The notes beneath the pieces are model-generated. The model worked only from the letters and a program-made list of their open reading frames with translations. It searched no databases and had not been told where the DNA came from. Position numbers and translations under genes: made by a program. From the NCBI GenBank assembly GCA_950295325.1, contig OX485804.1:2728001-2792000 (forward strand): DNA of 64,000 nt, read 5' to 3'. The DNA is from Polytrichum commune (lineage: Eukaryota; Streptophyta; Polytrichopsida; Polytrichales; Polytrichaceae). Positions 17,851 through 53,420 of this stretch are shown in pieces (within the stretch, counting starts at the first letter, position 1; each line of letters begins with the position of its first letter).

Positions 17851-18283
17851 GATTCACATATCCATACTCAAAAGATGATACTTCTTGCTTCCCCTTGAAT
17901 TCCTATTAGGACAATCTCCTCTTTTGAAGGAGAAATAGGACAATTTGGAGGGAAATTTGGAAAGTAGAGAGGCTCACGCTTCTAATGAAATGGAAAGGTG
18001 AACCGCTATGTTGTTGACGAATATCATGAGTCACCTTGGAATACACATTACATCCAACGATAGGTCATCCCTTCCGACGTGGCCTATGTTGTGTGGAGGT
18101 CACCGTAATAGTCCAGCTGGCATTCCACCGTGGCAAGCTTCCCTCTGTTTTTGAAAGTTTGTGCTGCAAACTATGTCGAGCACTCCGTTAGGGTTGATGA
18201 CACGAAGGAGATGAACCTCCTGCACTTGTGAGATTGAATTTTCAATTCGACTGCAGTGGCATCGCTTATCCAGAGATTTGGCC

Positions 18284-21752: not shown

Positions 21753-24700
21753 TTAAGGTGTACGAAGGTATGATGCAGTTGATCCATTCACCATGCTTGT
21801 CACAGGTTGGATTTCAGCCATCCGTAGTCTTTCATTTTCAAGCTGGATAAGATGTGTGCGCAGACTTCGCTCCTCTACCTGCTCAAGCACCCACAACCCT
21901 GACAAATGAATTCACTGCTTATCACCCAACAAAATTCTCCCCTTGTAACCAACTCTTCTAAAGATCAATTTCTGAAGAACCCTGGACATGAAGTAAACAA
22001 ATGGAGTTCCATACATCAACAAATTGAATACTCTGGAACCTACTTGTCATCACAAATGCTAGTCTAGATGACAACGTGAAACTGGAGCATGTTGAAGATT
22101 ACCTCTAAAGAAGCAGCCACAGACAACAAATCTCCACACTCTTCTAGAAGTGCTCGTTCCTGTGCTGCTGTCTCTGCCAATTGTGACAACAGACCATCCA
22201 TACTATGTGCCTGCAGGTTCAAACGCATAATATAAGGATATGCTTAGCACATCACACACATATTCACCTTGCAGAAGAAAAGAACTTACTCTAATCTTCT
22301 AAAGAGAGCTATGGAGCACAGTGGCCATGTCTGATCCGTTTGAAGGATCAATTATGCATTGGTCAACCCTAAATGCCTGAGGGTCTTAAGCAATTTGAAA
22401 ATCCACTATAAAAAGTATGTTCCCCTCTATGACAGAGAACTTCTTACAACAAAGGTATTCAGAAAGGATGGGTACACAAATCTATACGGTTGGTGTATAG
22501 AGTGAAGTTTAAAATACTTGTATGGGTATTATAGAAGTGTTATCAGTTAAAAAATCTCATAAATTTTATTTGGACCTTTTTCAGTAGAATTTTTGGTCAT
22601 AAATTTCCTATACACAAGATCAGAGTGTCATGAAAAGTTGCAAGAATAAAACTCATATGTGTCAAAAACCGTCAATATCCTTTGTTATTGGCTACACTCC
22701 TACACTACAAAGGTGTGGTGTGCCTAACTTTGCCAAGTCTTTAAAAATAAACTATTGGCCTCATTGTGGTGGGGATGGGCTCAACTAACCCTCAAGCCTT
22801 CACTCTACCCTATTTTAAAAAAAACCAGCAACATCAGAGCTACCCTTGAACCCCCAACCAGCTTGCAAAGGTGAAGGAGAAACCAAAAATGGTCTCTTAG
22901 GTGCTTAGGAGTTAACTAATATACATAGAAATAACCAAACAAAAGATGACAAACATTGCAATGTATGAGAATTTTTATGCAAAGTAGATAGCACATATTA
23001 ACAGAGTCACACCTTGGGTAGCAGAAGGTGCACAGATCCTTCAACTGCATTCAATACGTCTACTGCAGAACTAAGAGCTTCCTTCACAGCTTGAACATCA
23101 GCCTGCAAAATAAATATCATTCAAAGCTTCTTGTGAGGAGGAAGGTAAGAGTTTAGAAAACCATATTTGATATACCAAGCAAGGGCAGGAAGTTTGTATC
23201 TGGAACTCTGAAATAGTGAAGACACAGCTCCAAAACTTATGTATCGAGGACACTAGCTTGTGAGCAGTGATTTTGACCAGTTCAAAGTTCAATTTCATAC
23301 AAATACTTAATACTCCCTCCGTTTCATATCAAAAGTTACGTTTGGACATAATTTGCGTTACGAAACAAAAGATACGTTTGGTGAAATTTCTTTCAAACTT
23401 CGTCAAACGAATTGGAATGTTGCTATAAACAATGTAAATGTTGTTGCCGATGAACTACCAAGTCAATCAACTAACAATTTACACTTATTTAACAATTGAT
23501 ATTTGAACTCAACCTAAACCCAAACATCAACACGGTTTTATGTGTATCATTCGTCAATGGTGATGAACGGGCCGTTTCTTCTCAAAAACCCTAACCCTAA
23601 ACACAAACCTTAAGGAGCACGAGTCTCAACCTCACTACTCATTAGCAAATGAGCTTCAGTGCCATCCGCCCAAAATGACGGGCTTCCAATGAAATTGGCG
23701 TTAAAAAAAATTTGATTTTTTTTTTGGACACCCCTAGCTCACCGGAAAGTGCTTAGTGAGAGCTATACAACGCACACAATTTCGTGCTAAAAATGCGAAA
23801 AATGACCTTAATCCCACATATTTAGTGAAACGTAACTTTTGATATGAAACGGAGGAAGTACCAGCCAAGCAAGTAGGAATAATTATGCAGAGATCTACAG
23901 TTAAAATGTACAACTACATTAAATATTTACATGAAGAGAATATTCACATCTCAGCACCCAATTTCCATTCTCTTATAAATAATAGTGAAAACCAGAGATT
24001 CACTGCAACAATCTAGCCGCTCTTAACATATGTTACTATTCAAGGTTCTTAAATCCTATGAGGGACTGGACTTGCAACAACAGGGAGAACCTGGAAACTC
24101 ATTAAGTAGTAAATCTCATTCATGCAAAGTAAAAACTGCCAGCAGCAACACAAAACACACAAATTGAAGGTTAATTACCCGGGCACCTCCAGTTACTGGA
24201 ACTCTCAAAATTGCAGATTCCAGAGCTTCCATGCAACCATTCAATGCATTTGAGTGCTCCTCCTCAATCATCTCCCAGTCTTCCAAATGGGTTCCCTGTA
24301 AAAAATACCTAGCTCCTCAGAACATAGTTAAGTTCTAGGTGGTACTGCCAATGTCCAGCAAATGTGCAACACTGGGATAACCTTGCAAAAGTATACAAGA
24401 GTATCATGCACTGTGTAACAATATGCTGGCTACACATTAAATTCAGTAGGAAAAAAGTCAAGACATCATTTGCAGAATGATGTGTACTCTAGAAACTTTT
24501 GAGAAGCTTGAAGCAGGTAATATCTGGTGAGTAATACTTGTGGAAATCAAAAAGAGGAAAGCTCTTGTTCTAGATTATGTGTCATCAAATACATAAGTGA
24601 GATATCCAAGAATACTCAAAGCTTTACCAGAGTGACTTTCTGGATAAGAAAAAGTCCCCTGAAATGTATTCCATTACCTGTGTCCATCTTGAATGCTGTG

Positions 24701-27700
24701 ATCAAAGTTGTACAACCATCAAGCTACATTACATACTTACATGTGTAGATAAGATGGAGCGGAGCTTGTGAGCCTGCCTTGCTTGCTGCAGTTTGATCCG
24801 CTGCATGGCCACTGACGTTCGCAACTCAGAGGTTTTAACCCACACATTGTACAGTTGCCTCTGCATAATTGAAACAGACTCTTCATAAGCACTTTTCAAG
24901 CTGTAGAATATCTAATACATATGACTGGAGACAGGGGAATAACAACCCTTACCCCTCTACAATCTTCCTTGGGCAGGACTCCAACACCTAGAGGGTACCT
25001 ATATACAACATGGATACCCCAGGTAGGAACTGGCTGCTCGACTTTAGACAACCACTACAGAAATCCCAAATACAAGCTCTAGGAATCTCATTGATTGCAC
25101 CGCACCTTGCACATTCACATACCTTAATTTCTCAATAATTTTTTCAAAGTCTTGGTCATGATGTGCACTGGCTCTCATAGGTTTCTTAGTAGAAAACAGG
25201 TAATGAGGACTCAAGGTTCCTAAGATAGAATGAAACTCAAAAGCCTCATAAAGCATAATAGAAGTTTGCCAACCTTGCTAGCGAAATGCAATACTGCAAC
25301 AAATTCTCTGTTCATATCATATGGAAACTAGTCAACTTAATCTTTCAGTGGCAACCAAATACTGAGATAAAGATAATTATATCCAAAACACCACCTGCTC
25401 ATAATATTTGACAAGGTCAAATCACTACTTGGAAGGCATAGCAGATATAGGATGGTTGCACCTTCACTTTGATCATATGGTGTTGAGTTGGTGATTTAGA
25501 CAACCCATAGTAAGTAAATCTCCTGATAGCCTGCCATTTAAGACAAACTCATCCTAAATCTTATGAAGTCTTGAGGTAAAAGCTCCCATAGTTCTGTGAC
25601 ATATGATTTATCCATAAACCTACCTCACATAGCAATAGGATTTTTATTTAGCGTAAACCATACTACTTCATAATCCCACTCTGGAATCCGCCGGTAACAA
25701 GCACAGACCCTATTAGAGAGAAAAACGTCCTACATAATAAACATAGAACACCATTCTTGGTAAGAGGGCCCACTAATTTTCCACCCATATTGCCTCAGGA
25801 GGTCTGTGATGTTCAGCACAGGTATGATAATTGGAATATTGGTAACACCAAGAGAAGGTAAATAGCAGTCACACTGGAGATAAGAGACCTTGCCACTGAA
25901 ACAAAAAGAGATCCAATACTCAACAGAACAAAATTCTCTTCACATGTTACAGAAATGCAAGTCAAGCACTCTCCACAGAAGTGACTTCTGGGAACGCTGT
26001 TCACACCAGCCAAGAATAATTAATTAAATAAAGCATGACAAAATTTCCAAGAAAACAAAGCATACATGTGCATAAAGGTAAAGTCATCATTAGAGCACCA
26101 TGTCCACATAATAAAACAATGCATCTGTATGCAGACATGCAGACATGCACCTGCAGCACTTGTCAATATAGTGTTGCCTTGCACTCCCGCTTTATCCCAT
26201 GGATACTAGAGGGTATGCCATTGGACATCTAATCCGATGGGTTGAACAATCTAATCAGTTGGGCAAATCCTACAGTTCAAGATAGGCCATCCCTCCAACT
26301 ACAATTTCATTGCAGGACCCCTTTCTATGCAAGATGACATGAGAGCTTCTGATATTCAACCACAACAAATAGCTTAAGCTCCACTATGTTGCACGTACTA
26401 TACAGTACCAAGGAGTAGGCAGACAAGCTGTAGGGATAGTATGCACCTCAGCAGCTGCCTTTTGTGCACTCATTACAGCTTCAGCTCGTGCATTTACAAA
26501 ACGCCATTGGAGCCATCGGTTGTGAAGAATTCGTAACAGCTGAGCTTCTTCCTGTTGCGTCAATGACTTTTTCCCTCTACTTCGCCCGTCAATCCCAAAA
26601 TTCGACATACTACTTACTACAGCCCGAGCGGTCCCCATCATGGCTACAGACCCTGCATATCCAGGTCGTGACCTCTGAGGACTAGGTGCACCCCTCAGAG
26701 GAGACGATGGTCTCGAATGCTTAGGTGATGATGGTGGATGTGGAGTTGAAGGAGTAGAATTCCCTGCACCTCGGCCAGGAGAAAGTGCCCACGAAGACGT
26801 CATGCCCCCGTTCATACTATGATTCATGCTGCTACCCATCAGCATACTGGCTGCCGATTGGTGAGGCAGAACTTTACTCCGCCGAACTACCTTTACCGGC
26901 GCAATGCCGGGTGGGCAAACATCCGAATCTGTCGATCGCATGTGATCCCCCTCAGAAAATCTTCGCAACCTGTTGTTCATGTCTTGCCATACCCGAGCAG
27001 GTACGGTTGTGCCCCTTACGGAACCTCGCCCGGCGGGTGCCGACCCGCTTGAGGACACGCTATCAGTATCTGACATGGTATCCGTCGGACCAGGAGGGGC
27101 ACAAAGAACATCAATTGCTGCCACAGATTCCTGTGAGTGTCGCCGGACGTGACCACCCACATCCCTTCCGCTTGATGAATTCTTATTCGCTGGACTTGTC
27201 TCAACCTTGCTGTTGCCTACAGACTCCCGACCACCGTTTTCGGTGCCCACCTTGCCTCTCGTGGGCGAAGGATTCCGCCGCAAAGCTGTTGGACCGGAAG
27301 GTGTAGCTGGACCCTCGTTCATAGATCGATTGAAGCTTCGAGACACCGTGCTCCTCGCTCGAGACGAAGGTGTTCCGGGTCGCCCTTGCACTACCATTGT
27401 TGCTGATCGTGAAAGTGGCCTTTCCCTGTCCCCGCCGAGATCCATGCTTCTAGTCATCGACCCGCCGAACACCTTTCCGGTGCTCATGCCTGGCCATCTT
27501 TGTTGCTCGGGTTTCGAATGCGAATTGTCTTTGGGACGCGCATTTTCAGCTTGATCCAGGCTTTGACGCCGCATAGGAGACCCCTTCCGCTGTGGTGGAG
27601 AAACAGTCACAGCGTCGCCATTCCCAGCATGACGATGCACACCGTTTCCTGCAGGTTTCAGACTGTGATCACAACCTTCGCTAACCTCCTGCTGATCCTT

Positions 27701-28318
27701 GCCTTCGCTCTGGATGCTAGAATTCGGACTGTTGCCATTCGCCTCCGTACCCTGCTTCGAGGCGGACATGGATGGCCATAATTCGGGCCCTCTTGATTGC
27801 GAACGTGCCTTGCTTGCACCCAACCCATCCGTTGAGGCAGAGCTTGACGCCGACTTGCCATCTGAACTGCTTGTAGCCGGCCAAGGTCTTCGCCTCTCGG
27901 CAGAGAAAGCACGCTTCGGAGCCTCTGCCACGTTGCTCGTGCGACCTAAATTAGGAGAAGGGTGCCGGATAGGGGCGTCCGACTTTGCTGCGCTACTGGA
28001 ACTAGAAATGCTACTGCGATTTCTCACAGGAGAAGCTTGCCGTGAAGATGAAGACGAAGGTGAAGGCTGCCTAAGCGGTGACGGATTTCGGCGACCACCT
28101 GCAGCGGCAGCTGCAGGAGCAGGACTTGCCACTTTGTACCTGGAAGTAATCTCCCTGTTTCGCATCTTCCGCACCGCCGCTGCATTGGCCTTCTCGGCCG
28201 GAGGAAGACCTCCATAATTCTGTGCACCGTTTGTTTCCTTCTTCTTGTCCAGCTGCGGCTCTTTCACCGTAGGCGACGTAAGCACGGGGTTGGACGTAGG
28301 CGCCACCGCGGCAACCAT
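21753..28318 (-). CDS. QWRF-domain protein, AUGMIN subunit 8 family, copy A
   Basis: Six exons, all phase 0: 28318-26447, 24860-24741, 24295-24179, 23102-23013, 22210-22103, 21878-21753, giving 810 residues. QWRF proteins (AUG8, SCO3 and EDE1 in Arabidopsis) bind microtubules, and AUG8 belongs to the augmin complex that recruits gamma-tubulin. The N-terminal 570 residues are Ser/Pro/Arg-rich and disordered-looking, as expected of the microtubule-binding part. The conserved C-terminal domain has NRWLQWRFVNARAEA with QWRF at 604-607, then RQLYNVWVKTSELR, and helices with THLEDW and ADVQAVKEAL. The ATG at 28318 (ACCATGG context) follows an in-frame TGA a few codons upstream. Exon 1 ends GAG|GTGCAT; translating past this donor adds a spurious tail. 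Introns are 1586, 445, 1076, 802 and 224 bases. Head-to-head with copy B. The frame is intact, so it is likely functional. Confidence 0.92.
23311..23860. mobile_element. Stowaway-type MITE in intron 3 of gene A
   Basis: The ends are nearly perfect inverted repeats: CTCCCTCCGTTTCATATC at the left and the complement of GATATGAAACGGAGGAAG at the right. They are flanked by TA, the target duplication of Tc1/mariner-type elements. CTCCCTCCGT is the classic plant Stowaway terminus. About 550 bases, without transposase. Copies B and C lack it at the same intron, so it inserted after the duplication. Confidence 0.88.
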
Positions 28319-29294
28319 GGTCCGAACCGCCACCCTTCACTTCCCTTCCCCGGACTCATGCACCACTCCTCTCCCCTACATCGTAACGCTTCCACTCCTT
28401 CGCTTCACTCTCACACAATGCCATTTCCAGCTCACGTAAGCTCAACATTCTGTCTCCAGCGCCGGCGATCCCCTCACCGGCCTAGCTACCAACCAATCGA
28501 CACAACACAAACATCCTCTACGTTGCTCTTCCAGCTAATTCCGCAATACAGAGTCCATTTCCTGCTCATTTCCCACCCCGCCACCGCTACATTGCCTCCC
28601 CCACCTCTTCTCTCCACTTACCTCAAACTTGCCAGCCTCCACATCCGCCGACTCCCCGATCTCTCCTCCACTGATAGAACCCCCAGTCGCCACCATTGCG
28701 GCCATCACCACCAAAAAACGCTAAACCATATCAAGGTTAACAAGCCCCGAAACCACAGCTCACGAACCTTTCACAATCATCAATACTTCACCCCAACAAA
28801 CAAACAAATAAACAAAAACACGACAATCCAACCCCTAGGGTTCGCGCCGAGACGAACACCGATTTTCACACTGGTACTCGCGAAATTGGTCGCTGCTAAA
28901 AACCACCAGCGACGCCAATCTCCGACCCGAAGCTACCAAAAACTTCAAAAAGAGTTCACACGCATCCGCTGGCTTCATATAGTTGCTGTATATTGCGACG
29001 AAACCCCGAGATCGACCAATGTCGAGCTCCGCGACGAAAGAGCGAAACCGAAAGCCAAGCGAGCTGGTCGCAAGGGACTGAGGAAGCAAGGCCCCACCTC
29101 GAGCGTCAATCACCCGGTCCCGTACATGTTGGGTATACATTCATAGATTTCCGTGGAAAGTTTCGTAGATTCAGCGTGTCTGCGGCCCAAGTGATGGAGC
29201 CAGTACTCGAGTGTTCGATACATGCTGTTTTTGCACAGTACAGTACTGTAGTGGTATTTGATTTCGTATTTGTATAATATTATTTATATATGTC

Positions 29295-31884: not shown

Positions 31885-33945
31885 CTAGGAGGGCAGCACA
31901 AACATGTAAGCTAGTTTGGCCTCGTTTATTTGTCCCATACACCGACATTGAAGACCCATTAAGAATGGTGCATGATCTGAACGCCCCATGCTCAAGGTAA
32001 GGTCAATTTCCTCCTCAATAATGGAAAAGTGGCAAGGTGCACAGTTGTGTGTGTGATCCCTCCAAACCTTTTCACATTTGCCAATTAATTCCAATACGTC
32101 AATGGGCATCACAGTCTGGATGTGTAAGATGATGCGACAACCAATGACGTCAAGAATTGTAGGAGTGGTTTGTTGCAAATATATACACAAATTAAAGTCT
32201 TCAGGCATGAACCTACATAAGGTTTGTAACCACCTCCTCGTACAATCGTGAAACGCAATGTGTCCGGATGTTGTTCAATATTGAGGTTCTCCAATGCCAT
32301 GGGCTTGATGCATTGAAATAACTTGACTCGTGCTTAACATGTTGCTAATCATGTGTCAATATCATCCATCTTGACCACACCTTGTGTGGCCTGCTTGGTG
32401 GGCACTAGTAACACTAGTTCTTGTCTATATAATAGAAAATAAGGTGAGGTTTGCTTGTTGAAGCAATATTCCATGGCCAACTATGGTAGTTGAATGTCCC
32501 AACCCCTATGATGGTCGTGTTGTAGCCCGTACTTCCAAAGGCCCCGCTTGATGGTATGCACCATGCATATCACCAACCCATCTCCTTCGGGATGGTCCCG
32601 GGATGTCATCTAATGGTCTATGAAGGTTTGTTTGCATATGGTTTGGAAATTTGCCCAAGGATTCTCTACCTTGGTCCATCAACACCTCTGTAGGGGCCCT
32701 TAATCAACTTAAAACATGATTGAGAAACGCATAAGCGACGCCTTCAAGGAATTTGTCAAGCAAAATGATTAGTTCAATCCATTTGGAAGAATGCTCGTTA
32801 CTAAGATGTACTTGTTGTAGCATTTGGTTGTGGGCAAAGGTTGCGATTTGGGCATGTGAACATTAAGCAATGCACGGACCCAATCACACACCTTGGCTAT
32901 GAGGCGTTGAATGTCCACCTGCATGCCTTTCCACCAATAATGATGTTGTATTGCGTACGCCATAGTGATCTAGGTCCTTGAGTAGGCGGAGGATAAGTTC
33001 CTCTCTTCCATTGGGTGGAAGCACCACGCATTTCTCACCTCCATGAAGCTTCCAAACTAATTGGTTGCCTTCCCATTCAAATCGCTTGGCCCATTGCAAT
33101 CCCTCACCTTAGGTGTTACATCCATGTTCATAGTGAAGGTGCATAGGTAGGCCAACATCATCTCATCGTTCTAGATGTCCTGGGCGCCCCCAACTTCTTC
33201 GACATCGGGAGACATGGTCGTCATTATAGGGCATAGTCAAAAGGTTTAAATACAAGGAGGCAATCCACCATGCTTGCTTGTTGGACTCATCCTCTGCATA
33301 AAACTATTGGGACTCATCTTTGTCATTAAACTCAAACCTTTCAGGATCCTCGGTGAACCAACCAATGACTTCTTTCTCATCCCCGTCAGTGTGCCAATGA
33401 GCACTAAACAATTCCACCTAGTTGGCACATGGGTTGCGTCCTTGTTCACCAACCCGACTTGATGAACAATTCGGAAATCATATTGTTGGAGCATAAAAGT
33501 CAATTGAGCAAGTTTGCATGTTAATTTGTCAAATTCCATGAGCCACTTCATAGGTTGATGGTCAATTACTAACAAAAACTCATTTTATATAGGTAACAAT
33601 GAAAATGAACGATGGCCCAAACAACTGCCAAATATTTGCCCTTTTACGAATTGTACAAAGCCTTTGCATTGTTGTTGGAGCAATTGGCATAGGCAATGAC
33701 AAACTTTGTGTCATTGTCATTCATTTGTGTGAGCACAACTCCTAGGCCGAGTCCACTCCAATCGGTATGCAATTGATAGGACCTCCCTGCAATGAGTTGC
33801 CTAAGAATGGGTGCAAATGCCAATAGTTGATATGGTGAGTGGCTTGGCAATCATGTTGAAGGCCTCCACAAATTATTGTAATAGTTGGCGAGCCCTAGGA
33901 ATGCCCGTTACCTACTAACGTCGGTTGGTTGGGGGATCTTAGCTA
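31885..33945 (-). pseudogene. Ty3/gypsy pol relic (RT end, RNase H, integrase)
   Basis: On the minus strand, in the order expected for Ty3/gypsy pol: the end of reverse transcriptase (RAFLGLANYY, about 33890); RNase H (HTDWSGLGLGVVLTQ near 33760, then IDHQPMKWLMEFDKLT near 33565 and LQQYDFRIVHQ); the integrase zinc-finger region (HYGVRNTTSLL, HYWWKGMQ, about 32930-33030); pieces of the integrase core (TEVLMDQGREF-like, near 32680); and an integrase C-terminal part (MALENLNIEQHPDTLRF, about 32300; WRDHTHNCAPCH, about 32060). Several stops and frameshifts break the frame. Gag, protease and most of reverse transcriptase are missing, so it is 5'-truncated. It sits almost exactly midway between QWRF genes A and B. 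Confidence 0.85.
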
Positions 33946-37449: not shown

Positions 37450-38192
37450 AGTGTGGCAGTGCCCCGCTCGCTTGGCTTTCGGTTTCCCCCCTTGCGTCGC
37501 GGAGTCGACATTGTTCGATCTCGGGGTTTCCTCGCAATATACAGCTCCTATATGAAGCCAGCGGACGCGTGTTAGCCCTTTTTTTTTTAACATTTTCGAT
37601 TGCTTCGGCTGGGAGATTGGCATCGCTCGTGGTTTTCTGTAGCGACCAATTTCGCCAATCCAGTGTGGAGATCGGTGTTCGTCTCGGCGCGAACCCTAGG
37701 GGTTGGATTGTCGTGGTTTTCTTTTGTGAACCATTGATGGTTGTGAGAGGTGTATACGCTGTGGTGTCGCGGCTTGGTAAGCTTGATATGGTTAATGTGG
37801 TGGTGATGGTCGCAATGGTGGCGACTGGGGGTTCTATCAGTGGAGGAGAGATCGGGGAGTCGGCGGATGTGGAGGCTGGCAAGTTTGAGGTAAGTGGAGA
37901 GAAGAGGTGGGGGAGGCAATGTAGCGGTGGCGGGGTGGGAAATGAGCAGGAAATGGACTCTGTATTGCGGAATTAGCTGGAAGAGCAACGTAGAGGATGT
38001 TTGTGTTGTGTCGATTGGTTGGTAGCTAGGCCGGTGAGGGGATCGCCGGCGCTGGAGACAGAATGTTGAGCTTACGTGAGCTGGAAATGGCATTGTGTGA
38101 GAGTGAAGCGAAGGAGTGGAAGCGTTACGATGTAGGGGAGAGGAGTGGTGCATGAGTCCGGGGAAGGGAAGTGAAGGGTGGCGGTTCGGACC

Positions 38193-41100
38193 ATGGTTGC
38201 CGCGGTGGCGCCTACGTCCAACCCCGTGCTTACGTCGCCTACGGTGAAAGAGCCGCAGCTGGACAAGAAGAAGGAAACAAACGGTGCACAGAATTATGGA
38301 GGTCTTCCTCCGGCCGAGAAGGCCAATGCAGCGGCGGTGCGGAAGATGCGAAACAGGGAGATTACTTCCAGGTACAAAGTGGCAAGTCCTGCTCCTGCAG
38401 CTGCCGCTGCAGGTGGTCGCCGAAATCCGTCACCGCTTAGGCAGCCTTCACCTTCGTCTTCATCTTCACGGCAAGCTTCTCCTGTGAGAAATCGCAGTAG
38501 CATTTCTAGTTCCAGTAGCGCAGCAAAGTCGGACGCCCCTATCCGGCACCCTTCTCCTAATTTAGGTCGCACGAGCAACGTGGCAGAGGCTCCGAAGCGT
38601 GCTTTCTCTGCCGAGAGGCGAAGACCTTGGCCGGCTACAAGCAGTTCAGATGGCAAGTCGGCGTCAAGCTCTGCCTCAACGGATGGGTTGGGTGCAAGCA
38701 AGGCACGTTCGCAATCAAGAGGGCCCGAATTATGGCCATCCATGTCCGCCTCGAAGCAGGGTACGGAGGCGAATGGCAACAGTCCGAATTCTAGCATCCA
38801 GAGCGAAGGCAAGGATCAGCAGGAGGTTAGCGAAGGTTGTGATCACAGTCTGAAACCTGCAGGAAACGGTGTGCATCGTCATGCTGGGAATGGCGACGCT
38901 GTGACTGTTTCTCCACCACAGCGGAAGGGGTCTCCTATGCGGCGTCAAAGCCTGGATCAAGCTGAAAATGCGCGTCCCAAAGACAATTCGCATTCGAAAC
39001 CCGAGCAACAAAGATGGCCAGGCATGAGCACCGGAAAGGTGTTCGGCGGGTCGATGACTAGAAGCATGGATCTCGGCGGGGACAGGGAAAGGCCACTTTC
39101 ACGATCAGCAACAATGGTAGTGCAAGGGCGACCCGGAACACCTTCGTCTCGAGCGAGGAGCACGGTGTCTCGAAGCTTCAATCGATCTATGAACGAGGGT
39201 CCAGCTACACCTTCCGGTCCAACAGCTTTGCGGCGGAATCCTTCGCCCACGAGAGGCAAGGTGGGCACCGAAAACGGTGGTCGGGAGTCTGTAGGCAACA
39301 GCAAGGTTGAGACAAGTCCAGCGAATAAGAATTCATCAAGCGGAAGGGATGTGGGTGGTCACGTCCGGCGACACTCACAGGAATCTGTGGCAGCAATTGA
39401 TGTTCTTTGTGCCCCTCCTGGTCCGACGGATACCATGTCAGATACTGATAGCGTGTCCTCAAGCGGGTCGGCACCCGCCGGGCGAGGTTCCGTAAGGGGC
39501 ACAACCGTACCTGCTCGGGTATGGCAAGACATGAACAACAGGTTGCGAAGATTTTCTGAGGGGGATCACATGCGATCGACAGATTCGGATGTTTGCCCAC
39601 CCGGCATTGCGCCGGTAAAGGTAGTTCGGCGGAGTAAAGTTCTGCCTCACCAATCGGCAGCCAGTATGCTGATGGGTAGCAGCATGAATCATAGTATGAA
39701 CGGGGGCATGACGTCTTCGTGGGCACTCTCTCCTGGCCGAGGTGTAGGGAATTCTGCTCCTTCAACTCCACATCCACCATCATCACCTAAGCTTTCCAAA
39801 CCTTCTTCGCCTCTGAGGGGTGCACCTAGTCCTCAGAGGCCACGACCTGGATATGCAGGGTCTGTAGCCATGATGGGGACCGCTCGGGCTGTAGTAAGTA
39901 GTATGTCGAATTTTGGGATTGACGGGCGAAGTAGAGGGAAAAAGTCATTGACGCAACAGGAAGAAGCTCAGCTGTTACGAATTCTTCACAACCGATGGCT
40001 CCAATGGCGTTTTGTAAATGCACGAGCTGAAGCTGTAATGAGTGCACAAAAGGCAGCTGCTGAGGTGCATACTATCCCTACAGCTTGTCTGCCTACTCCT
40101 TGGTACTGTATAGTACGTGCAACATAGTGGAGCTTAAGCTATTTGTTGTGGTTGAAAGTTTGAATATCAGAAGCTCTCATGTCATCTTGCATAGAAAGGG
40201 GTCCTGCAATGAAATTGTAGTTGGAGGGGTGGCCTCTCTTGAACTGCAGGATTTGCCCCACTTCATAGATTTTTGAATGGATTGGTTTACAAGTTAAACA
40301 GCATACTGGTACTCTTTCTGCTGGTTCTAGAAAACATATCGCAAGCTTGATCTGGTCAGCTCTATCTGTATTTGATCTGTAAACTAATATGCAAGGATAT
40401 TAAACACAAGGGACGAGAAGAGTGCTAGTCAACGTTGTGATTGAACTGGTAACACTATGTTGATAAGTGGTCATGCTGCAGAGTTGCTCTCTGTATGCAG
40501 ATGCATTCTAGTAGCATGTGCACATGGCGCTGTTGCAATGACAGAATGTTTGAGTGTGTGGTGATAAATTATAAGGCCCAGACTAAATTTGAATAAAATC
40601 TGGTTGCTTGAAAGTTACATTCTGAATAAATCATGTTTCATTGAAATCTAAGTACCTCTTGCCTTAAGGCCTCGTAAAATTAAGGGTGATTTTGGATTAC
40701 AAACAGGGAATGACAAATGGAACCACTTCAGGAATCTTAAATAACGAGCTCAATGCTCTGTGAGCAAACTGTACGTGCAAGTCATCCTGAATGTTCTATT
40801 TCTTCCATTTAGTGGTTTGATTTTCCTTCCTATATTGAGACAAGACAGTTAGATTATGTTCATCCTGCTATAAGTTTCAACCATTTCAACATCTCATGGT
40901 CATTATCAATGCTGAGGAAGCTTCTGATTCAATCATGCAGAGGCAACTGTACAATGTGTGGGTTAAAACCTCTGAATTACGAACATCAGTGGCCATGCAG
41001 CGGATCAAACTCCAGCAAGCAAGGCAGGCTCACAAGCTCCACTCCATCTTGTCTACACATGTAAGTTTGAAATGTATTTTAAGTGACGTGCAACCTTGTC

Positions 41101-42755
41101 CACAAGATGAACATTGGCATAGGGATGGAAAGTATGTGACGGGTAACCTGCTGAGCGAGAAAGTCACTCTGCTACAGATTTGAGTACATAGATCTAGAAC
41201 CTTTGTTGCTCTGATTTCAAAAAGTATTACAAACCACATATCACCTGCTTCATGCTTCTCATAAAGTTTCTAGACTACAAATCAAATTGTAAATCATGTC
41301 TTGCCAAATTTCCAGCCAAAATATCTGGACGTTAATAGCCATCATCATGTTACACAGTGAATGGTACTCTTGTATGTTGTTGCGAAGTAACTGCAGTTCT
41401 AGACATATGCTGCACATTGGCTATGCCACCTTGAATTCAACTATGTTAAGTGAGGCTTGGGTGTTTTTTACAGGCAACCCATTTGGAAGACTGGGAGTTG
41501 ATAGAGGAGGAGCACTCAAATGCATTGAATGGTTGCATGGAAGCTCTGGAATCAGCAATTTTAAGAGTCCCAGTAACTGGAGGTGCTCGGGTAATGAAAA
41601 TTTTAAGAACAGTGTAGTAGTCGTGCTTTCGATGTAGTTGTGATTCCGATGTAGTTGTGATTCCGATGTAGTTGTGATTCCGATGTAGTTGTGATTCCGA
41701 TGTAGTTGTGATTCCGATGTAGTTGTGATTCCGATGTAGTTGTGCCGCTTCCATAATGAAACTTTCGAAGTAGTTGTGCTGCTCCCGTATTGTGTGTTTT
41801 GTGGTGCGGCTGACAGTCCTTACTCTGTGTAAGCGTTAATGACTACTTGAAAAGAGTTCTTCCTTGTGGTTCCAGTAAGACCAGTGCATCAGAGGATTTG
41901 AATCTTGTTGGGGAATGTAATCCAATAATGACATACCCTGTGCAGGCTGATGTTCAAGCTGTGAAGGAAGCTCTCAATTCTGCAGTAGATGTACTGAATG
42001 CAGTTGAAGGATCCGTGCACCTTCTGTTACCCAAGGTGTGACTTTTGTATTATGTGCTAGCTATTTTGCATAAGGTTTCTCACATTTGGCAATGTGATTC
42101 ATGGTTGGTTTGAATTTTCCTATATATAGTAGTTAACCGATCCTGGACCGACCCTGAAATGGATGGGACATGGTGTGTGTTTCTTCTATAGTTCTCTCTG
42201 GAAGGTTTGAGCAAGTTGTCTTGTGCTGCAAGGTGAATATGTGGGTAATATGCTGAGTATATTGCATGTTACACATTTGTACCTGCAGGCACAGGGTATG
42301 GATGGTCTGTTGTCACAATTGGCAGAGACAGCAGCGCAGGAACGAGCACTTTTAGAAGAGTGTGGAGATCTGTTGTCTGTGGCTGCTTCTCTAGAGGTAA
42401 TGTGTAAGGTGTTCCAGTTTGATGTGGACATTAAGACATTAAGACATCCAGTATTTTTTGACGATAAGTAGGCCCATGAGTGTTCAGTTCAATTGTGTAT
42501 GGAACTCCATTTGTTTACTTCATCTCCAGGGGTTCTCCAGAGTTTGATATTCAAAAGAGTTGGTTAGAATGGGAGAATTTTGTTAGGTGATAAGCTTTGA
42601 ATTCATTGGTTTGTGGGGTGGTTGAGCAGGTAGAGGAGCGAAGTCTTCGCACACATCTGATCCAGCTTGAAAGTGAAAGACTTCGGATGGCTGAATGCCA
42701 GCCTTTGACAATCATGGTGAATGGCCCTAGTGCATCGTATTTGCATACTCCTTAA
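38193..42755 (+). CDS. QWRF-domain protein, AUGMIN subunit 8 family, copy B
   Basis: Six phase-0 exons: 38193-40064, 40941-41060, 41474-41590, 41946-42035, 42289-42396, 42630-42755, encoding 810 residues. The layout is as in copy A, with QWRF at residues 604-607 and all C-terminal helices present. Exon 1 differs from A only in a short patch before the QWRF domain (A has PKHSRPSSP, B has PKLSKPSSP as in C; A has GRGAGNST, B has GRGVGNSA). In exons 2-6 B is closer to C: exon 4 KEALNSAVDV and exon 6 MAECQPLT, where A has MAEIQPVT. Intron 1 is 876 bases against about 1.57 kb in A and C, so it has an internal deletion. Intron 3 holds an expanded 17-bp minisatellite. The start ATG has an in-frame upstream TGA and an ACCATGG context. 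The frame is intact and expression is likely. Tail-to-tail with copy C. Confidence 0.92.
41631..41743 (+). repeat. 17-bp minisatellite in intron 3 of gene B
   Basis: Six perfect units of GATGTAGTTGTGATTCC (41631-41732) plus a partial seventh. Copy C has at the matching place only one related stretch (GATAGTTGCGCTGCTTCC on its sense strand), so the array grew in B from a single ancestral unit. Confidence 0.95.
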
Positions 42756-42907
42756 GACCCTGAACACCCAAATCTTAACCTTTTGATGCAGATCTGGTGA
42801 CATCTTCCACTTTCTAGGACCTGAAAGTAGGATGGAAAGAGCTTTGGCAACAGGAGAACAAGTGTCCCTTCCATAGAGAAAATGGGCAGTGCCATTGACA
42901 ACCCAGT

Positions 42908-42924
42908 GGGGGGGGGGGGGGGGG
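42908..42924 (+). repeat. poly-G tract, 17 bases
   Basis: A pure G run in the 3' flank of gene B. The matching place in C reads CAGTAGGGGGGTAGGGG on the sense strand, so the run is expanded in B or is a base-calling artefact. Confidence 0.8.
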
Positions 42925-43739
42925 TAGGGGATTACACTTACACGGATAATCTCAGAAGAGTAGGTTCAATGAATGCCTCCATCACCCTACACACCGTTCC
43001 CCCCCCTAAGAACCCTCCTGCTGCTTGCAACATCTATACCCTCCAAGCAATAGCCATGTAAAATACTTTGCCAAAAGAAAGCTGGCCCTTGCTGGGCTCA
43101 TGCCTCAGTTATTTGTACTCTGAACACACGTGCCGTGAATATGGTCTCTTAGTGGTCTTTCAATCATTGCACTGTTTTGAGTTGTGAGGATGAGTAAATG
43201 GTTAATGATTATCCTTTCCTGATCGATAGTTCTGTGGTCCATCATTCCACAAAGGCTATGCCATAGTTGGCCGTCAACTTTATCCTTGCCGTAACTTAAG
43301 TTTTTTACTAAGAAAATGTATGGACGAAGTAGAGTGACTTATCAGCCATTGCTGCAACGGTGCTAGCCACTTCAGTTTGCCGCAATCTACAAATCTGGCA
43401 GAGTGATAGACAGGTGTGGCAGTCGGATGGCAGTGTGCTAACTTCATGTTTGATTTTTCTGTACTGAAGGGCATGATTGTACCTTGTGTAGGAGACTTCA
43501 GATGATAGGTACCAACAATATACAATTAATTAATTTTCTTGGAGTACTTTTCAAATGACGCAGCCGGCAGTGCATTACAGGACTTGGAAATCAAATGGGG
43601 GTTCCCCCCTTAATCTGGAACTTATAGTCTTGGTCCGGAGACAATAGTTCTCAACAATTTTCATGAGGTAATTTTATAGGAAAGTAAATGAAATTGAATT
43701 TAGAGTTGTGGAAGCCAAAAATTGTGACTAGAATTACAT

Positions 43740-45711: not shown

Positions 45712-46484
45712 CTAAGGGTGAGTTTCCATGTAGGCCGCTTGCCCACCATATTCTAGTGAGAATATGTCAAACTCACCCAAATGTAGATAGCATGTGGTGG
45801 GGTAAGGATTGTATGTGCCAACTAACTACTTGCATCTTCTCAAATCCAGTCCCACCTACTAACCTCCTCCTCCTAAAAGTGGTCTTAAATCCTTCGTTGA
45901 CCAGCATTTGTAGGTTAAAAAGTGCGTTAGTGAGCACATGGAAGTCTAGCAACCCATGGCGAGGAGAAATCTAGAAGGCCATGAGGATGTGGTTAGTGGC
46001 TAATGGTTAAGGCGAGTTTGCATGTAGGCCGCTCGCCCACTAGATTCTAGAAAGTAGTGGGTTAGAGGTGCTCGCATGTACTTAAGCGCAAGCCATCATC
46101 CAACCACATTCTGGAGGTCACCTAGAATGTGGAGGCCCGTGGACATAGACTGCTAGACTTCCATGCCTCCACTAAAGAATCTTCAACCTTCAAGTGCCGG
46201 CCACTGAAGGTTTTGAAGACCGTTTTTAAGAGGAGATTTCAACATGGGGGAGGAGGTTAGTAGGTGGGCCAAGATTTGAGAAGAAGAGTGTGGCTAGTTG
46301 GCACATACAAACCCTACCCCACTAGATTCTCTTTACATTTGGACGGATTTGTCCTTGTTTACAGCAGCATCTAGTGGACGAGCGGCCTACATGAAAACTC
46401 ACCCTTATCTACATGAGGACACCTCCAACCCACTATTATCTAGAATCCAGCGGGCAAGCGGCCTATATGAAAACTCATCCTTAA
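45712..46484. mobile_element. foldback element with long nested inverted repeats
   Basis: The left end TAAGGGTGAGTTTCCATG with TAGGCCGCTTGCCC is the reverse complement of the right end GGGCAAGCGGCCTA with ATGAAAACTCATCCTTA. Pairing continues inward with gaps: GTATGTGCCAACTA and CCTACTAACCTCC at the left match AGGAGGTTAGTAGG and TAGTTGGCACATAC at the right. A second pair of the terminal motif lies at about 46013 (GAGTTTGCATGTAGGCCGCT) and 46380 (AGCGGCCTACATGAAAACTC). The result is a nested hairpin of about 770 bases without coding capacity. Superfamily unknown; no target duplication was recognised. Confidence 0.7.
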
Positions 46485-46639: not shown

Positions 46640-49600
46640 GACGTTGAGAAACCCAAGCCACTATGGGCATTTGTATACGTATTTCAAACTGATTGGCTGG
46701 AGTCTCTACCACAATGTGCAATCATGCTCTTCAGTACTGGAAATTCAAAGATGAAGTAAGCTAGTACACTGCCATCCGACTGCCATGCCTGTCCACTACT
46801 CTGCCAAGCTTGCAGCAAACTGAAGTGGCGAGCACCTGACGTCAGTGATCAATAACTCATTCTCCAGAACATCTCATGTGGTACCAAAACTGCCAGCATA
46901 CAGAGAAAGCTAACCGGCTCATCATTCCCAAGTAAACCAGTGCCAGGAGTGTGAAATCCTCAAACCAGGTATCCTGAAGTTCAATCCTGAAGTCCCAAAG
47001 TTTGTGACCATAGACATACTTTGCTAAGATGACCTGATGCAAAATATAGGTCTCACTCTCCCATGTTACAAACAAATGAGGCACCACGGCACTATCAATC
47101 AAGGATAATCATTAACCATTTACTCATCCTCACAACTCAAAACAGTGCAATGAAAGACCACTAAGAGACCATATTCACGGCAAGTGTGTCCAGAGTACAA
47201 ATAACTGAGGCATGAGCCCAGCAAGGGCCAGCTTTCTTTTGGCAAAGTATTTTACATGGCTATTGCTTGGAGGGTATAGATGTTGCAAGCAGCAAGAGGG
47301 CTTTTAGGAGGGGAACGGTGTGTAGGGTGATGGAGGCATTCATTGAACCTACTCTTCTGAGATTATCCGTTAAAATGTAATCCCCTACCCCCCTACTGGG
47401 TTGTCAATGGCACTGCCCATTTTCTCTATATAAGGGACACTTGTTCTCTTGTTGCCAAAGCTCTTTCCATCCGACTTTCAGGTCCTAGAAAGTGGAAGGT
47501 GTCACCAGATCTGCATCAGAAGGTTAAGATTTGATTATTCAGGGTTTTAAGGTGTATGCAAGTACAATGCAGTAGGGCCATTCACCATGCTTGTCAAAGG
47601 CTGGCATTCAGCCATCCGAAGTCTTTCACTTTCAAGCTGGATCAGATGTGTGCGAAGACTTCGCTCCTCTACCTGCTCAACCACCCCACAAACCCAACCA
47701 TAAATACACAGCCCATCACCCCTCCTCTTCCATATAAACTCTGGAGAACCCCTGGAGATGAAGTAAACAAATGGAGTTCCATACACAATTGAACTGAACA
47801 CTCATGGGTCTACTTATTGTCAAAAAATACTGGATGTCTTAATGTCTTAATGTCCACATCAAACTGGAACACCTTACACATTACCTCTAGAGAAGCAGCC
47901 ACAGACAACAGATCTCCACACTCTTCTAAAAGTGCTCGTTCCTGCGCTGCTGTCTCTGCCAATTGTGACAACAGACCATCCATACCCTGTGCCTGCAGGT
48001 ACAAATGTGTAACATGCAATATACTCAGCATATTACCCACATATTCACCTTGCAGCAGCACAAGACAACTTGCTCAAACCTTCCAGAGAGAACTATAGAA
48101 GAAACACACACCATGTCCCATCCATTTCAGGGTCGGTCCAGGATCGATTAACTACAATGTATAGGAAAATTCAAACACAACCATGAATCGCATTGCCAAA
48201 TGTGAGAAACCTTATGCAAAACAGCTAGCACATAATACAAAAGTCACACCTTGGGTAACAGAAGGTGCACGGATCCTTCAACTGCATTCAATACATCTAC
48301 TGCAGAATTGAGAGCTTCCTTCACAGCTTGAACATCAGCCTGCACAGGGTATGTCATTCACGGATTACATTCCCCAACAAGATTCAAATCCTCTGATGCA
48401 CTGGTCTTACTGGAACCACAAGGAAGAACTCAAAAACATCTTCAAATTGTCATTCTCATTCACATAGAGAACTGCAATATGGAAGCAGCGCAACTATCTC
48501 AGTTGTTCTTAAAGATTTTCTTACCCGAGCGCCTCCAGTTACTGGGACTCTCAAAATTGCTGATTCCAAAGCTTCCATGCAACCATTCAATGCATTTGAG
48601 TGCTCCTCCTCTATCATCTCCCAATCTTCCAAATGGGTTGCCTGTAAAAACCATCCAAGCCTCACATAACATAGTTGAGTTGTAGGTGGCATAGCCAATG
48701 TGCAGCAATTGTCTCACACTGCAGTCACTTCATAACAACATACAAGAGTACCGTTCACTGTGTAACATGATGTTGTGTTAACATGAATACCACATTGTGT
48801 AACTTTCAAGTCCACATTATTTTCAGCAGGACTTTTGGCAAGACATGGTTTAAGGGTTGATGTATGGTCAAGACACTTTTTGAGAAGCTTGAAGCAGGTG
48901 ATAAGTTGTTATACTTGTAAAATCAACACACAGAAGCTTCTTGTTATAAATATGCTACCTTAGTCAAGACTACTTGAATCTCCACTTGAGTGACTTTCAC
49001 GTTTAGCAGGCTACCCATGAAATACTTTCCATGCTCATCTTGTGAACAAAGTTGCATGCCACTCAAGGTACATTAGAAACTCACATGTGTAGATAGGATG
49101 GAGCGGAGCTTGTGAGCCTGCCTGGCTTGCTGGAGTTTGATCCGCTGCATGGCCACTGATGTTCGTAACTCAGAGGTTTTAACCCACACATTGTACAGTT
49201 GCCTCTGCATGATTAAAATAGAACCTTCATTAGCATTGTAATGACTGAGTTGTTGGACTAGTTGGAACTTGATAGCAGGATGCACTTCTATTAGTATATA
49301 TCTTAGCAGGAGACAGATAATTATTACTACATACGGTTCCTACATTGGAATGAAATTGATAGAAAGAGTATGATGGAGGTTTCCTACTTTTACTCGCATA
49401 ATGTGATACTATTACATAGAAAATAGTCATGTAGCAGTTACATAACACAGAGGTCAGTGTTTTGAAAGATAAATTTATCTAAACCGCCATCTGCTTGTCA
49501 TAATTCGAAATGTCAAACAACTTCAGGGAAGAATAATACATTTACTAGGATGTCTTGCACCTTCACTGTGCTCAGAGTGTTGAGTTGATCATTTAAGCAT

Positions 49601-52600
49601 CCCAAAGGTGTGCCATCTTATCATTGTCTGCTTTTAAAGCCAAATTCACCCTTAATCATACGAGGTTTAAAGAGCTACTTGAGTGACATATGATTTGTTC
49701 ACATTGTGACTAAACAGCAGACATACAATTTGATTTTAGTTTAGGCCATATTATTTATCACCATGCATATAAACTGCACTGGATACAGACAGTGACAAGC
49801 ATAGACCTTGTCAGGGGATATATGGTGTTACAGGAGGAAATGTGAAGGTCACTCTACTTCAAGGAACCAACTAATTTATCACCCACATTAATTCACGAGG
49901 TCTGTGGTGTTCACCACAGATATGATAATTGGATAAGAGTAAGACTGACAGAAGTTACATAGCAGCCACGTGTAGAGAAGAGAATTTACGCCTGAAAGAA
50001 AAAGTGCACAAAATGATTGTCTTGAAGATTGACAGATACGTAGGTAATAAATCATAAATAAAAATGAATTTTGAGAAAACTATTCAGAATAGCCACGGTT
50101 TAAATCATGCATCACAAAAAGCAAGGTCTACTCTCGTACAAAGTTTATGTCATAAATGCAGGCCCCCTGTGCACATGCTAAAGCAATGCATCTGCAGACA
50201 TGGTGCAATGTGCGGCATGAGCACTTATCATTATAATCTATCCAGTTCAATGACTACACTGAACAGCACTCCTTCTCCTTCCCCTTGTAATTTATGTCCA
50301 TAGATATCAGTGCATAGATATAATTTAGCTAGAACTGAGGAGGTAAGGTTCGACGTGAGTTTTGCATCACCAATGGCAGAAGACGGGTATGCTTAAACTC
50401 TTCAATTGCTCTGAGTTGACCACGAACAAAATCTAATCCCTTTTCCGAACTTGATCCGAGTCTAAATACATTAGTAGAAAATAGACAAAAATTAAAGATA
50501 CTTTATTCACTCTCAGTTCGACATTATATTTATGGGCGTCTACCGAAATTGAATCACGTCCTGTTGTGAACTATTCAATGAAAGAATCTAATTAGTGGGG
50601 CAAATTCTGCAGTTTACATGAAAATACCCTTCCAACTTTGATTTCATTGCAGGAATTCTTACTATGCAAGATGACATGAGAGCTTCTGATATTCAAGTTT
50701 TCAAGAAACAGAAATGTAGAAAGAAGACAGCCAAAGCTGTAGGGATAGTATGCACCTCAGCGGCTGCCTTTTGTGCACTCATAACAGCTTCAGCTCGTGC
50801 ATTTACAAAACGCCATTGGAGCCATCGGTTGTGAAGAATTCGTAACAGCTGAGCTTCTTCCTGTTGCGTTAATGACTTCTTCCCTCTACTTCGCCCGTCA
50901 ATTCCGAAATTCGAAATAGAGCTTCCCAAAACTCGAGCGGTTCCCATCATGGCTACAGACCCTGCATATCCAGGTCGTGACCTCTGAGGACTAGGTGCCC
51001 CTCTCAGAGGAGATGAAGGTTTGGAAAGCTTAGGTGATGATGGTGGATGTGGAGTTGGAGAAGAATTACCTCCGCCTCGGCCAGGAGAAAGTGCCCATGA
51101 GGATGTCATACTCCCGTTCATACTATGATTCATGCTGCTATTCATGAGCATACTAGCTGCCGATTGGTGAGGCAGAACTTTACTCCGCCGAACTACCTTT
51201 ACCGGCGCAATGCCGGGTGGGCAAACATCCGAATCTGACGATCGCATGTGATCCCCCTCAGAAAATCTTCGCAACCTGTTGTTCATATCTTGCCATACCC
51301 GAGCAGGTACAGTAGTGCCCCTTACGGAAGATCGGCCGCCGGGTGCAGAGCCGCTTGAGGAAACACTATCAGTATCTGACATGGTATCCGTCGGACCAGG
51401 AGGGGCAGAAAGAACATCAATTGCTGCCACAGATTCCTGTGAGTGTCGCCGGACGTGAGCAGCGACGTCCCCTCCACCTGGTGAACTCTTATTTGCTGGA
51501 CTTGTCTCAACCTTACTGTTGCCTACAGACTCACGAGAACCATTTTCGGTGCCTACCTTGCCTCTCGTGGGGGAAGGATTGCGCCGCAATGCTGTTGGAC
51601 CAGAAGGTGTAGCTGGCCCCTCGTTCACAGATCGATTGAAGCTTCGAGACACCGTGGTCCTCATTCGAGAGGAAGGTGTTCCAGGTCGCCCTTGCACTAC
51701 CATTGTTGTCGATCGTGAAAGAGGCCTTTCCCTGTCCCCGCCGAGATCCATGCTTCTAGTCATCGACCCGCCGAACACCTTCCCAGTGCTCATGCCAGGC
51801 CATCTTTGATGGTCAGGTTTCGGATTTGAATTCTCTGTAGGACGAGCGTTTTCAGCTTGATCCACGCTTTGTCGCCGCATAGGCGAACCCTTTCGCTGTG
51901 TAGGAGAAACAGTGACAGCGTCACCATTCCCAGCATGACGATGCACACCATTTCCTGCAGGTTTTAGGGTGTGATCAGAAGCCTCCCTGGCCTCCTGCTG
52001 ATCCCTGCCCTCACCCTGGCTACGAGAATTGGGACTGTTTCCATTGGCCTCAGTAGCCTGCTTAGAGGCAGACATGGATGGCCATAATTCAGGCCCTCTT
52101 GATTGCGAACGTGCCTTGCTTGCGCCCAACCCATCCGTTGAGACAGAGGTCGATGCCGATTTACCATCTGAACTGTTTGCAGCTGGCCATGGTCTTCGCC
52201 TCTCCGCTGAGTATGCACGTTTTGGAACGTCCGGCAAACTGCTAGTGCGAACCAAATTGGGAGAAGGATGCCGGCTATGGGCATCCGGGGTTGCTGCCGA
52301 AACGGAGTTAGAACTGCTACTGCGATTTCTTACGGGAGAAGCCTGCCGTGAAGATGAAGGTGAAGGTTGCCTAAGTGGTGAGGGATTTCGGCGACCACCT
52401 GCCGCTGCCGATGGAGGAGCAGGACTTGCCACTTTGTACCTGGAAGTAATCTCCCTGTTTCGCGTTTTCCGTACAGCTGCTGCATTGGCCTTCTCGGCTG
52501 GAGGAAGACCCCCATAATTCGGTGCACCATTTGTTTCCTTCTTTTTTTCCAGCTGCGGCTCTTTAACAGTAGGCGATGTAAGCAGCGGGGGGGACGCAGG

Positions 52601-53420
52601 CGCCACCGCGGCAACCATGGTCCAAACCACCGGCCTTCACTTCCCTTCCCTGGCCTCATGCACCACTCCTCTCCCCTACATCTCGACGCTCCCACTCCTT
52701 CGCTTCATTCTCAAACAATACCATTTCCAGCTCCCATTGGTCCAGCATTCCGTCCCTAGCGCCAGCGATCCCTCACAAACTTAGCCACCGATCAAGGCAG
52801 CCGTACCAATCGAGACAAGACAAACATCCCCTGTCTTGCTCTTCATTGAAGACTCACACTATAACGTCCTTTCCCTGCTCTTTTCCACCGGCCACCGCTA
52901 CATTGTCTCCGCCACCTCACTCCGCCTCTTCTCTGCATTCAACTCAATGCACCACTTCCCAACCTCCACATCCGCCGACGCCCCACCCCACACACACACC
53001 TCGGTCGCCACCATTGCGACCATCACCACCGTCATAAGTACATTAACCATACCAAGCACACCAAGCCCCGAAACCGCAGTGCACGCACCTCTCACAACCA
53101 TCAACACTTCAAAAAAATTTAACCACAACAATCAACTCCTAGGGTTCGCGCCAAGATGAACACCGATCTCCGCACTGGGTTGGCGAAATTGGTCGCTACC
53201 TAAAACCACGAGCGACGCCAATCTCCCAACCGAACCTAACAAAAACGTCAAAAGAGCCAACACACATCCGCTTGCCCCATATACTAGCTGTAGATTGCGA
53301 GGGAACCTCGACATCCAGCAACCAACGTCGAGGTCCGCGACGCAAGGGGGGAAACCGAATGCGAAGCGACCTGGGGCACAGGGGAGTCGGGACTGGGGAA
53401 GCATGCGCCCTCAGGCCAAA
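46640..53420 (-). repeat. segmental duplication unit C (QWRF gene copy C)
   Basis: Same orientation as A, inverted relative to B. The 3' flank matches B over about 46690-47545, including CTGCCATCCGACTGCCAT and GATGGAGGCATTCATTGAA. The 5' flank matches A and B to about 53380. C is the most diverged copy in exon 1, and it is the most similar to B in exons 2-6. Confidence 0.85.
47547..52618 (-). CDS. QWRF-domain protein, AUGMIN subunit 8 family, copy C
   Basis: Six phase-0 exons: 52618-50756, 49204-49085, 48641-48525, 48339-48250, 47992-47885, 47672-47547, encoding 807 residues. Exons 2-6 have exactly the lengths seen in A and B (120, 117, 90, 108 and 126 bases); exon 1 is three codons shorter. 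QWRF is at residues 601-604. The N-terminal half is diverged from A/B mainly by substitutions in Ser/Pro-rich linkers, while blocks such as NNRLRRFSEGDHMRS and PVKVVRRSKVLPHQSAASML are unchanged, suggesting purifying selection on them. An in-frame TGA lies eight codons upstream of the ATG. Introns are 1551, 443, 185, 257 and 212 bases. The role is inferred as for copy A (microtubule and augmin binding). Intact and probably functional. Confidence 0.92.

What the first reader, a model, noticed from the sequence alone, without database searches (positions are those of the whole stretch)
37815..40225. Gene-conversion-like mosaic: exon 1 of B is identical to A, its flanks are not
Between about 37815 and 40225 B matches A (26286-28696) almost base for base, with coordinates summing to 66511. 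Just outside, similarity drops abruptly to that of old paralogues, and the rest of gene B resembles C more. A recent duplication alone would not leave old, diverged sequence on both sides of an identical core. Conversion of B by A (or the reverse) across the inverted pair explains it.
Basis: partly seen in the sequence, partly recalled or inferred. Interest (0 to 1): 0.75.

Follow-up and report, generated by a model that had tools for sequence, protein, structure and literature searches.

The report
Plant gene overwritten by its neighbours
In a land-plant genome (probably a moss), the middle one of three neighbouring sister genes has become identical to one neighbour over its front end and, apparently earlier, similar to the other neighbour over its back end: a very clear but ordinary case of gene conversion.

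Summary
Confirmed, with corrections. Three QWRF-family genes with intact six-exon frames alternate in orientation: A (-), B (+), C (-). A and B are identical over B 37811-39727 (1917 bp), 39841-40151 (311 bp) and 40160-40228 (69 bp), interrupted by a 113-bp island with 10 substitutions and by 8 bp absent from A. The homologous flanks are old: A-B differ by 14% upstream and 37% in the rest of intron 1. The longest A-B run is 248 variable sites, against at most 17 in 10,000 shuffles. A second, more diverged tract joins B to C over 41851-43246 (3-6% B-C divergence by segment; 20-28% in introns 1-3 upstream). A and C show none. So B is a two-ended mosaic: 5' end shared with head-to-head neighbour A, 3' end with tail-to-tail neighbour C. 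Ectopic gene conversion from a DNA template explains this best. Direction is probably A to B for exon 1 (moderate evidence). Assembly error is unlikely but was not tested with reads. The phenomenon is well known, and conversion of tandem genes has been suggested in Physcomitrella (PMC3045890, passages). It is a clear new example, not a new kind.

The parts
37811..39727 (+). Conversion tract 1a: B identical to A (A 28700-26784) over 1917 bp; sequence upstream of the start codon and most of exon 1
39728..39840 (+). Island: 10 A-B substitutions in 113 bp, of mixed polarity (A=C at 3, B=C at 4, other 3); read as unconverted old paralogous sequence
39841..40228 (+). Conversion tract 1b: identical to A (311 + 69 bp) apart from 8 bp absent from A opposite 40152-40159; spans the end of exon 1 and the first 164 bp of intron 1
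26291..28700 (-). Partner tract in gene A (probable donor)
41851..43246 (+). Tract 2: B homogenised with C (C 48431-47075): end of intron 3, exons 4-6, introns 4-5, 3' region; 3-6% B-C divergence by segment, exact patches up to 239 bp
47075..48431 (-). Partner tract in gene C
21753..28318 (-). Gene A, QWRF family, six coding exons 28318-26447, 24860-24741, 24295-24179, 23102-23013, 22210-22103, 21878-21753; 810 aa, open frame
38193..42755 (+). Gene B, QWRF family, six coding exons 38193-40064, 40941-41060, 41474-41590, 41946-42035, 42289-42396, 42630-42755; 810 aa, open frame
47547..52618 (-). Gene C, QWRF family, six coding exons 52618-50756, 49204-49085, 48641-48525, 48339-48250, 47992-47885, 47672-47547; 807 aa, open frame

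Best explanation
Three old QWRF paralogues in alternating orientation exchange sequence by ectopic (non-allelic) gene conversion. Inferred mechanism: a double-strand break or stalled fork in one copy is repaired by homologous recombination using the inverted neighbour as template. This made about 2.4 kb across exon 1 identical between A and B (probably copied from A to B), in one discontinuous event or two adjacent ones that left a 113-bp unconverted island. One or more further events homogenised the 3' ends of B and C; these are probably older on the whole, though exact patches of up to 239 bp may be recent. Shown: the tracts, their edges, the island, the open reading frames and the copies reported in the assembly. 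Inferred: the repair mechanism, the direction, the relative ages, and any favouring of facing ends by proximity.
For: Identical A-B runs of 1917, 311 and 69 bp between flanks diverged by 14% (5') and 37% (intron 1). 248 consecutive variable sites of A-B type against at most 17 in 10,000 shuffles; B-C 66 against at most 20; A-C longest run 4, P = 0.23. No A-B substitution in 370 columns upstream of the start codon or in 119 columns of intron 1 within the core, where C differs by 20% and 18%, so constraint does not explain the identity. Fourfold sites of exon 1: A-B differ at 5/369 (exon 1 has 10 A-B differences in all, the ten of the island), against 85/335 to C. Both tracts contain intron sequence, so the template was not spliced cDNA. 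The island has changes private to A and changes private to B, as old unconverted sequence should. A search of the assembly with the core reported B and A in full, C at 86%, and a 110-bp fragment on another contig. Direction A to B: outside the tracts C is closer to B than to A (5' flank 16.6% against 19.6%; intron 1 28.4% against 36.5%; intron 2 20.3% against 28.8%; fourfold sites of exons 2-3 2/34 against 7/34), whereas in the core C stands at an A-like distance upstream of the start codon (20.3%) and at fourfold sites (25.4%; Fisher P = 0.0097 against the B-C value, 0.68 against the A-C value).
Against: No reads were available, so assembly or polishing error is not formally excluded. Direction rests on small, post hoc comparisons: the comparison upstream of the start codon alone is not significant (Fisher P = 0.24 against B-C), the intronic part of the core lies nearer to C (17.6%) than either A or B does in the rest of intron 1 and so does not help, exons 2-3 could themselves have been exchanged between B and C, and the decayed fourth copy gives 9 sites shared with A/B against 10 with C in exon 1. 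Conversion and a double crossover or template switch leave the same trace. No ortholog from a related species was at hand to show the earlier state. The shuffle test treats sites as exchangeable.
Confidence: 0.92

Rival explanations
1. Assembly or polishing artefact: consensus of A was written into B (or the reverse), or two copies were collapsed.
For: The identity is perfect over 1917 bp, and reads could not be inspected.
Against: An island of 10 substitutions and an 8-bp gap sit inside the block. The window has no N and lies on contig C2, on which a match at 70.1 Mb is listed. The core search reported one place for A and one for B, each between its own diverged flanks. A second tract between B and C, carrying scattered differences, suggests a real recurring process.
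Confidence: 0.05
2. Recent partial inverted duplications created B as a chimera of A's 5' half and C's 3' half.
For: B matches A best at its 5' end and C best at its 3' end.
Against: Between and outside the two tracts B still aligns to A and C as an old paralogue: 5' flank 14-17%, rest of intron 1 28-37%, intron 2 20-27%. The two tracts differ in divergence (0 against 3-6%). A plain chimera would have no old B-specific sequence in between.
Confidence: 0.02
3. Strong purifying selection keeps exon 1 of A and B identical.
For: The reading frames are open and the QWRF domain is conserved.
Against: C differs from them at 85/335 fourfold sites in exon 1 and by 18-20% in the non-coding parts of the core.
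Confidence: 0.01
4. A crossover between the inverted cores, which would invert the 9.1-kb A-B spacer, accompanied the event. This is an addition to conversion, not an exclusive alternative.
For: A and B are inverted, so a crossover would flip the spacer without loss; nothing seen here excludes it.
Against: A crossover alone does not make two diverged sequences identical; conversion is still needed for the 2.4-kb identity. No relative was available to compare spacer orientation.
Confidence: 0.1

Closest known systems
Concerted evolution of tandemly arrayed genes by gene conversion in the moss Physcomitrella (suggested in PMC3045890, passages read, citing Lang et al. 2008, which is not held)
   Same: Neighbouring paralogues in a probable moss kept alike, by conversion.
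Arm-to-arm gene conversion in inverted repeats and palindromes, e.g. willow W chromosome, and mammalian sex-chromosome palindromes as described there (PMC7023750, passages read)
   Same: Inverted copies on one chromosome exchange sequence, over part of their length.
   Different: Here the arms are single old genes whose tracts lie 9.1 kb and 3.8 kb apart, not large palindromes; whether this is a sex chromosome was not examined.
QWRF family (PF04484; Arabidopsis QWRF1 and QWRF2 affect microtubule organisation, PMC10135539, passages read)
   Same: All three genes match PF04484 above its cut-off and carry the QWRF motif.
   Different: No unusual feature of the proteins was noticed; their function was not tested.

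Membership tests
Ectopic (non-allelic) gene conversion between paralogues | Tract of near identity between two paralogues with abrupt edges inside older, diverged homology | tested here: met
Ectopic (non-allelic) gene conversion between paralogues | Run of shared variants longer than expected by chance (GENECONV-type permutation, own script) | tested here: met
   A-B 248 sites against a maximum of 17 in 10,000 shuffles; B-C 66 against 20; A-C 4, P = 0.23
Ectopic (non-allelic) gene conversion between paralogues | Non-reciprocal transfer (donor unchanged) | tested here: inconclusive
   A as donor of exon 1 moderately favoured; decayed fourth copy uninformative; needs an ortholog from a relative
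Ectopic (non-allelic) gene conversion between paralogues | Not an assembly artefact | not testable with these tools
   no reads held; indirect evidence
cDNA-templated conversion (retro-correction) | Tract lacks intron sequence | tested here: not met
   tract 1 includes the first 164 bp of intron 1 (40065-40228); tract 2 includes introns 4 and 5
QWRF family (PF04484) | Profile match above the curated cut-off | tested here: met
   three genes, exon by exon; exon 1 of B
QWRF family (PF04484) | Microtubule association | not testable with these tools
   only PMC10135539 passages on Arabidopsis members

The most novel reading that the evidence does not exclude
In an alternating (head-to-head, tail-to-tail) array the conversion partner may be chosen end by end by whichever inverted neighbour faces that end, so that the middle gene becomes a two-ended mosaic of its neighbours while same-orientation copies (A, C) do not exchange. 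If general, the orientation of tandem copies would decide which parts of genes evolve in concert.
Probability: 0.3. Interest if true: 0.5.

Novelty: new member of a known kind. Interest (0 to 1): 0.3.

Why it matters
It is a clean natural record of ectopic conversion in a probable moss; the model moss Physcomitrella is noted for homologous-recombination-mediated gene targeting (abstract of PMC4990234 in the listing). It warns that a tree of such genes built from exon 1 and one built from exons 4-6 would be expected to disagree. Two tracts on the facing ends of one gene make a simple hypothesis about orientation and partner choice testable genome-wide.

Tried and rejected
Constraint, chimeric duplication and cDNA-templated correction were considered and rejected on silent, flanking and intronic sequence. 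The fourth, decayed QWRF copy on contig C3 (L001, called D) was tried as an outgroup for direction. In intron 1 outside the core it is nearest to B (75 sites shared with B alone, 33 with C alone, 8 with A alone), but exon 1 gives 9 sites (A and B) against 10 (C), so it hardly helps. The G/C direction of core differences (127 sites G/C in A/B and A/T in C; 84 the reverse) cannot be polarised without an outgroup. Organism: the PsaB frame from contig C8 scores highest against PDB chains 8htu, 6l35 and 7ksq among the 60 listed of 170 matches. I recall these as Physcomitrella photosystem I; the listing names no organism, so 'probably a moss' is an inference. The RbcL frame printed was not searched further. 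Literature searches. 'QWRF' with 'gene conversion' found 0 papers and the five-term search found 0; both cover the held library only. Passages of PMC3729371 were read; they mention a proposed role of gene conversion in intron loss but nothing on this case.

Full report
WHAT IS THERE. The window is bases 2728001-2792000 of contig C2 in a 408-Mb, 64-contig assembly. It holds three genes of the QWRF family (PF04484). A search of the assembly with that profile reported 12 exon-level matches, all 12 in this window (17 candidates scored); a decayed fourth copy on contig C3 was not among them and came to light by DNA similarity. A lies on the minus strand, B on plus, C on minus, so A-B are head to head and B-C tail to tail. 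Each has six coding exons at matching places and an open frame of 810, 810 and 807 residues. AG/GT borders were printed for B, C and the first two exons of A, and can be read in the alignment for the other exons of A. The gene models are mine, from conservation and splice signals; no transcript was seen. Exon 1 carries 624 codons in A and B and 621 in C and ends shortly after the QWRF motif.

THE A-B TRACT. A and B are identical over B 37811-39727 (1917 bp), 39841-40151 (311 bp) and 40160-40228 (69 bp). Between the first two lies an island, 39728-39840, with 10 substitutions: at 3 A agrees with C, at 4 B agrees with C, and 3 are neither. Changes private to each of the two genes within 113 bp, and none in the rest of the core, are what old unconverted sequence should show, and not what a burst of mutation in one gene would give. 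Between the second and third run A lacks 8 bp that B has; C has sequence there. Left of 37811 there is one substitution (37810), then an indel and dense differences. A-B divergence is 47/326 there, and 211/570 in the rest of intron 1.

NOT CHANCE, NOT CONSTRAINT. Of 5261 gap-free columns in the three-gene alignment, 1203 vary. The longest run of variable sites at which A and B agree against C is 248; in 10,000 shuffles of site order the maximum was 17. C differs from the shared A/B sequence by 75/370 upstream of the start codon, by 21/119 in the intronic part and at 85/335 fourfold sites of exon 1, so the stretch is not held identical by selection. The shuffle test treats sites as exchangeable, a simplification.

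THE B-C TRACT. Over B 41851-43246, B and C differ by 3/92 (end of intron 3), 29/770 (exons 4-6 with introns) and 24/434 (3' region). In the introns upstream they differ by 162/570, 78/385 and 22/83. Taken one by one, intron 4 is 98.0% and intron 5 91.3% identical between B and C, so the tract is uneven. The longest B-C run is 66 variable sites (maximum in shuffles 20), and exact patches reach 239 bp. Downstream, similarity is 79% over 43359-43501. This reads as a second, patchier and on the whole older tract. A and C, which have the same orientation, show no tract (longest run 4; P = 0.23).

DIRECTION AND TEMPLATE. Outside the tracts C is nearer to B than to A: 5' flank 16.6 against 19.6%, intron 1 28.4 against 36.5%, intron 2 20.3 against 28.8%, fourfold sites of exons 2-3 2/34 against 7/34. 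In the core C stands at an A-like distance upstream of the start codon (20.3%) and at fourfold sites (85/335; Fisher P = 0.0097 against the B-C value, 0.68 against the A-C value). That favours A as donor, moderately. Against it, or unhelpful: the comparison upstream of the start codon alone is not significant (P = 0.24); the intronic part of the core is nearer to C (17.6%) than A or B are in the rest of intron 1; the decayed fourth copy gives 9 against 10 sites in exon 1; all these comparisons were chosen after the tract was known. Both tracts include intron sequence, so the template was not spliced cDNA.

ARTEFACT. A search of the assembly with B 37798-40156 reported four places: B and A in full, C at 86% and a 110-bp fragment at C3:7093121-7093230. 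Stretches withheld from the tool read N, so further copies are not strictly excluded. No reads were available. The island, the 8-bp gap and the B-C tract speak against collapse, and I put it at about 5%.

AGE. The identical runs sum to 2297 bp with no difference. By the rule of three the divergence is below about 0.13% (95%), leaving out the island, which I excluded after seeing it; with the island it is 10 substitutions in about 2,410 bp. No date is given because the organism and its mutation rate are unknown.

GEOMETRY. The inner ends of the A-B tract are 9.1 kb apart (A 28700, B 37811) and those of the B-C tract 3.8 kb apart (B 43246, C 47075). In both pairs the homogenised part belongs to the end of the gene that faces its partner. 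The homologous 5' flank of A and B (B 37463-37797), which lies still closer to the partner, was not homogenised. With two cases the facing-end pattern is a hypothesis and not a rule.

RELATION TO WHAT IS KNOWN. Gene conversion between neighbouring paralogues is long established (general knowledge). [quoted passage not shown] For inverted copies in a plant, PMC7023750 (passages) reports conversion between palindrome arms on the willow W chromosome. PMC5765362 (passages) reports that identity appears correlated with proximity within nematode gene clusters. The present case is a new, unusually legible member of this known kind.

Noticed in passing
L001 (G000:C3:7088500-7097500), about 3734-5136 on its minus strand: A decayed fourth QWRF copy with stop codons on another contig; in intron 1 it is closest to gene B.
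   Followed up: partly
window 4341-5865, 13331-14278 and 60050-60818: Direct repeats with units of roughly 390, 195 and 385 bp, the main pairs 81-89% alike.
   Followed up: no
window 45713-46483: Imperfect palindromic element (arms 78-89% complementary) in the spacer between B and C, possibly a foldback transposon; its centre (about 46060) does not coincide with the B-C mirror centre (about 45150).
   Followed up: no
window 41651-41850: Short-unit minisatellite-like stretch in intron 3 of B, just upstream of the 5' edge of the B-C tract; seen as repeats in the frames, mostly gap in C in the alignment.
   Followed up: no
window 37811-40228 against the spacers: The core is G+C-rich (54.8%) compared with the A-B spacer (37.9%) and the B-C spacer (39.6%).
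   Followed up: no
window 18215-18664: Open frame that from recall looks like a FAM32A-type protein; the Pfam scan of this stretch gave no match.
   Followed up: no
window 33246-33584 (-): Open frame resembling, from recall, a Ty3-type retroelement fragment in the A-B spacer; the Pfam scan gave no match.
   Followed up: no
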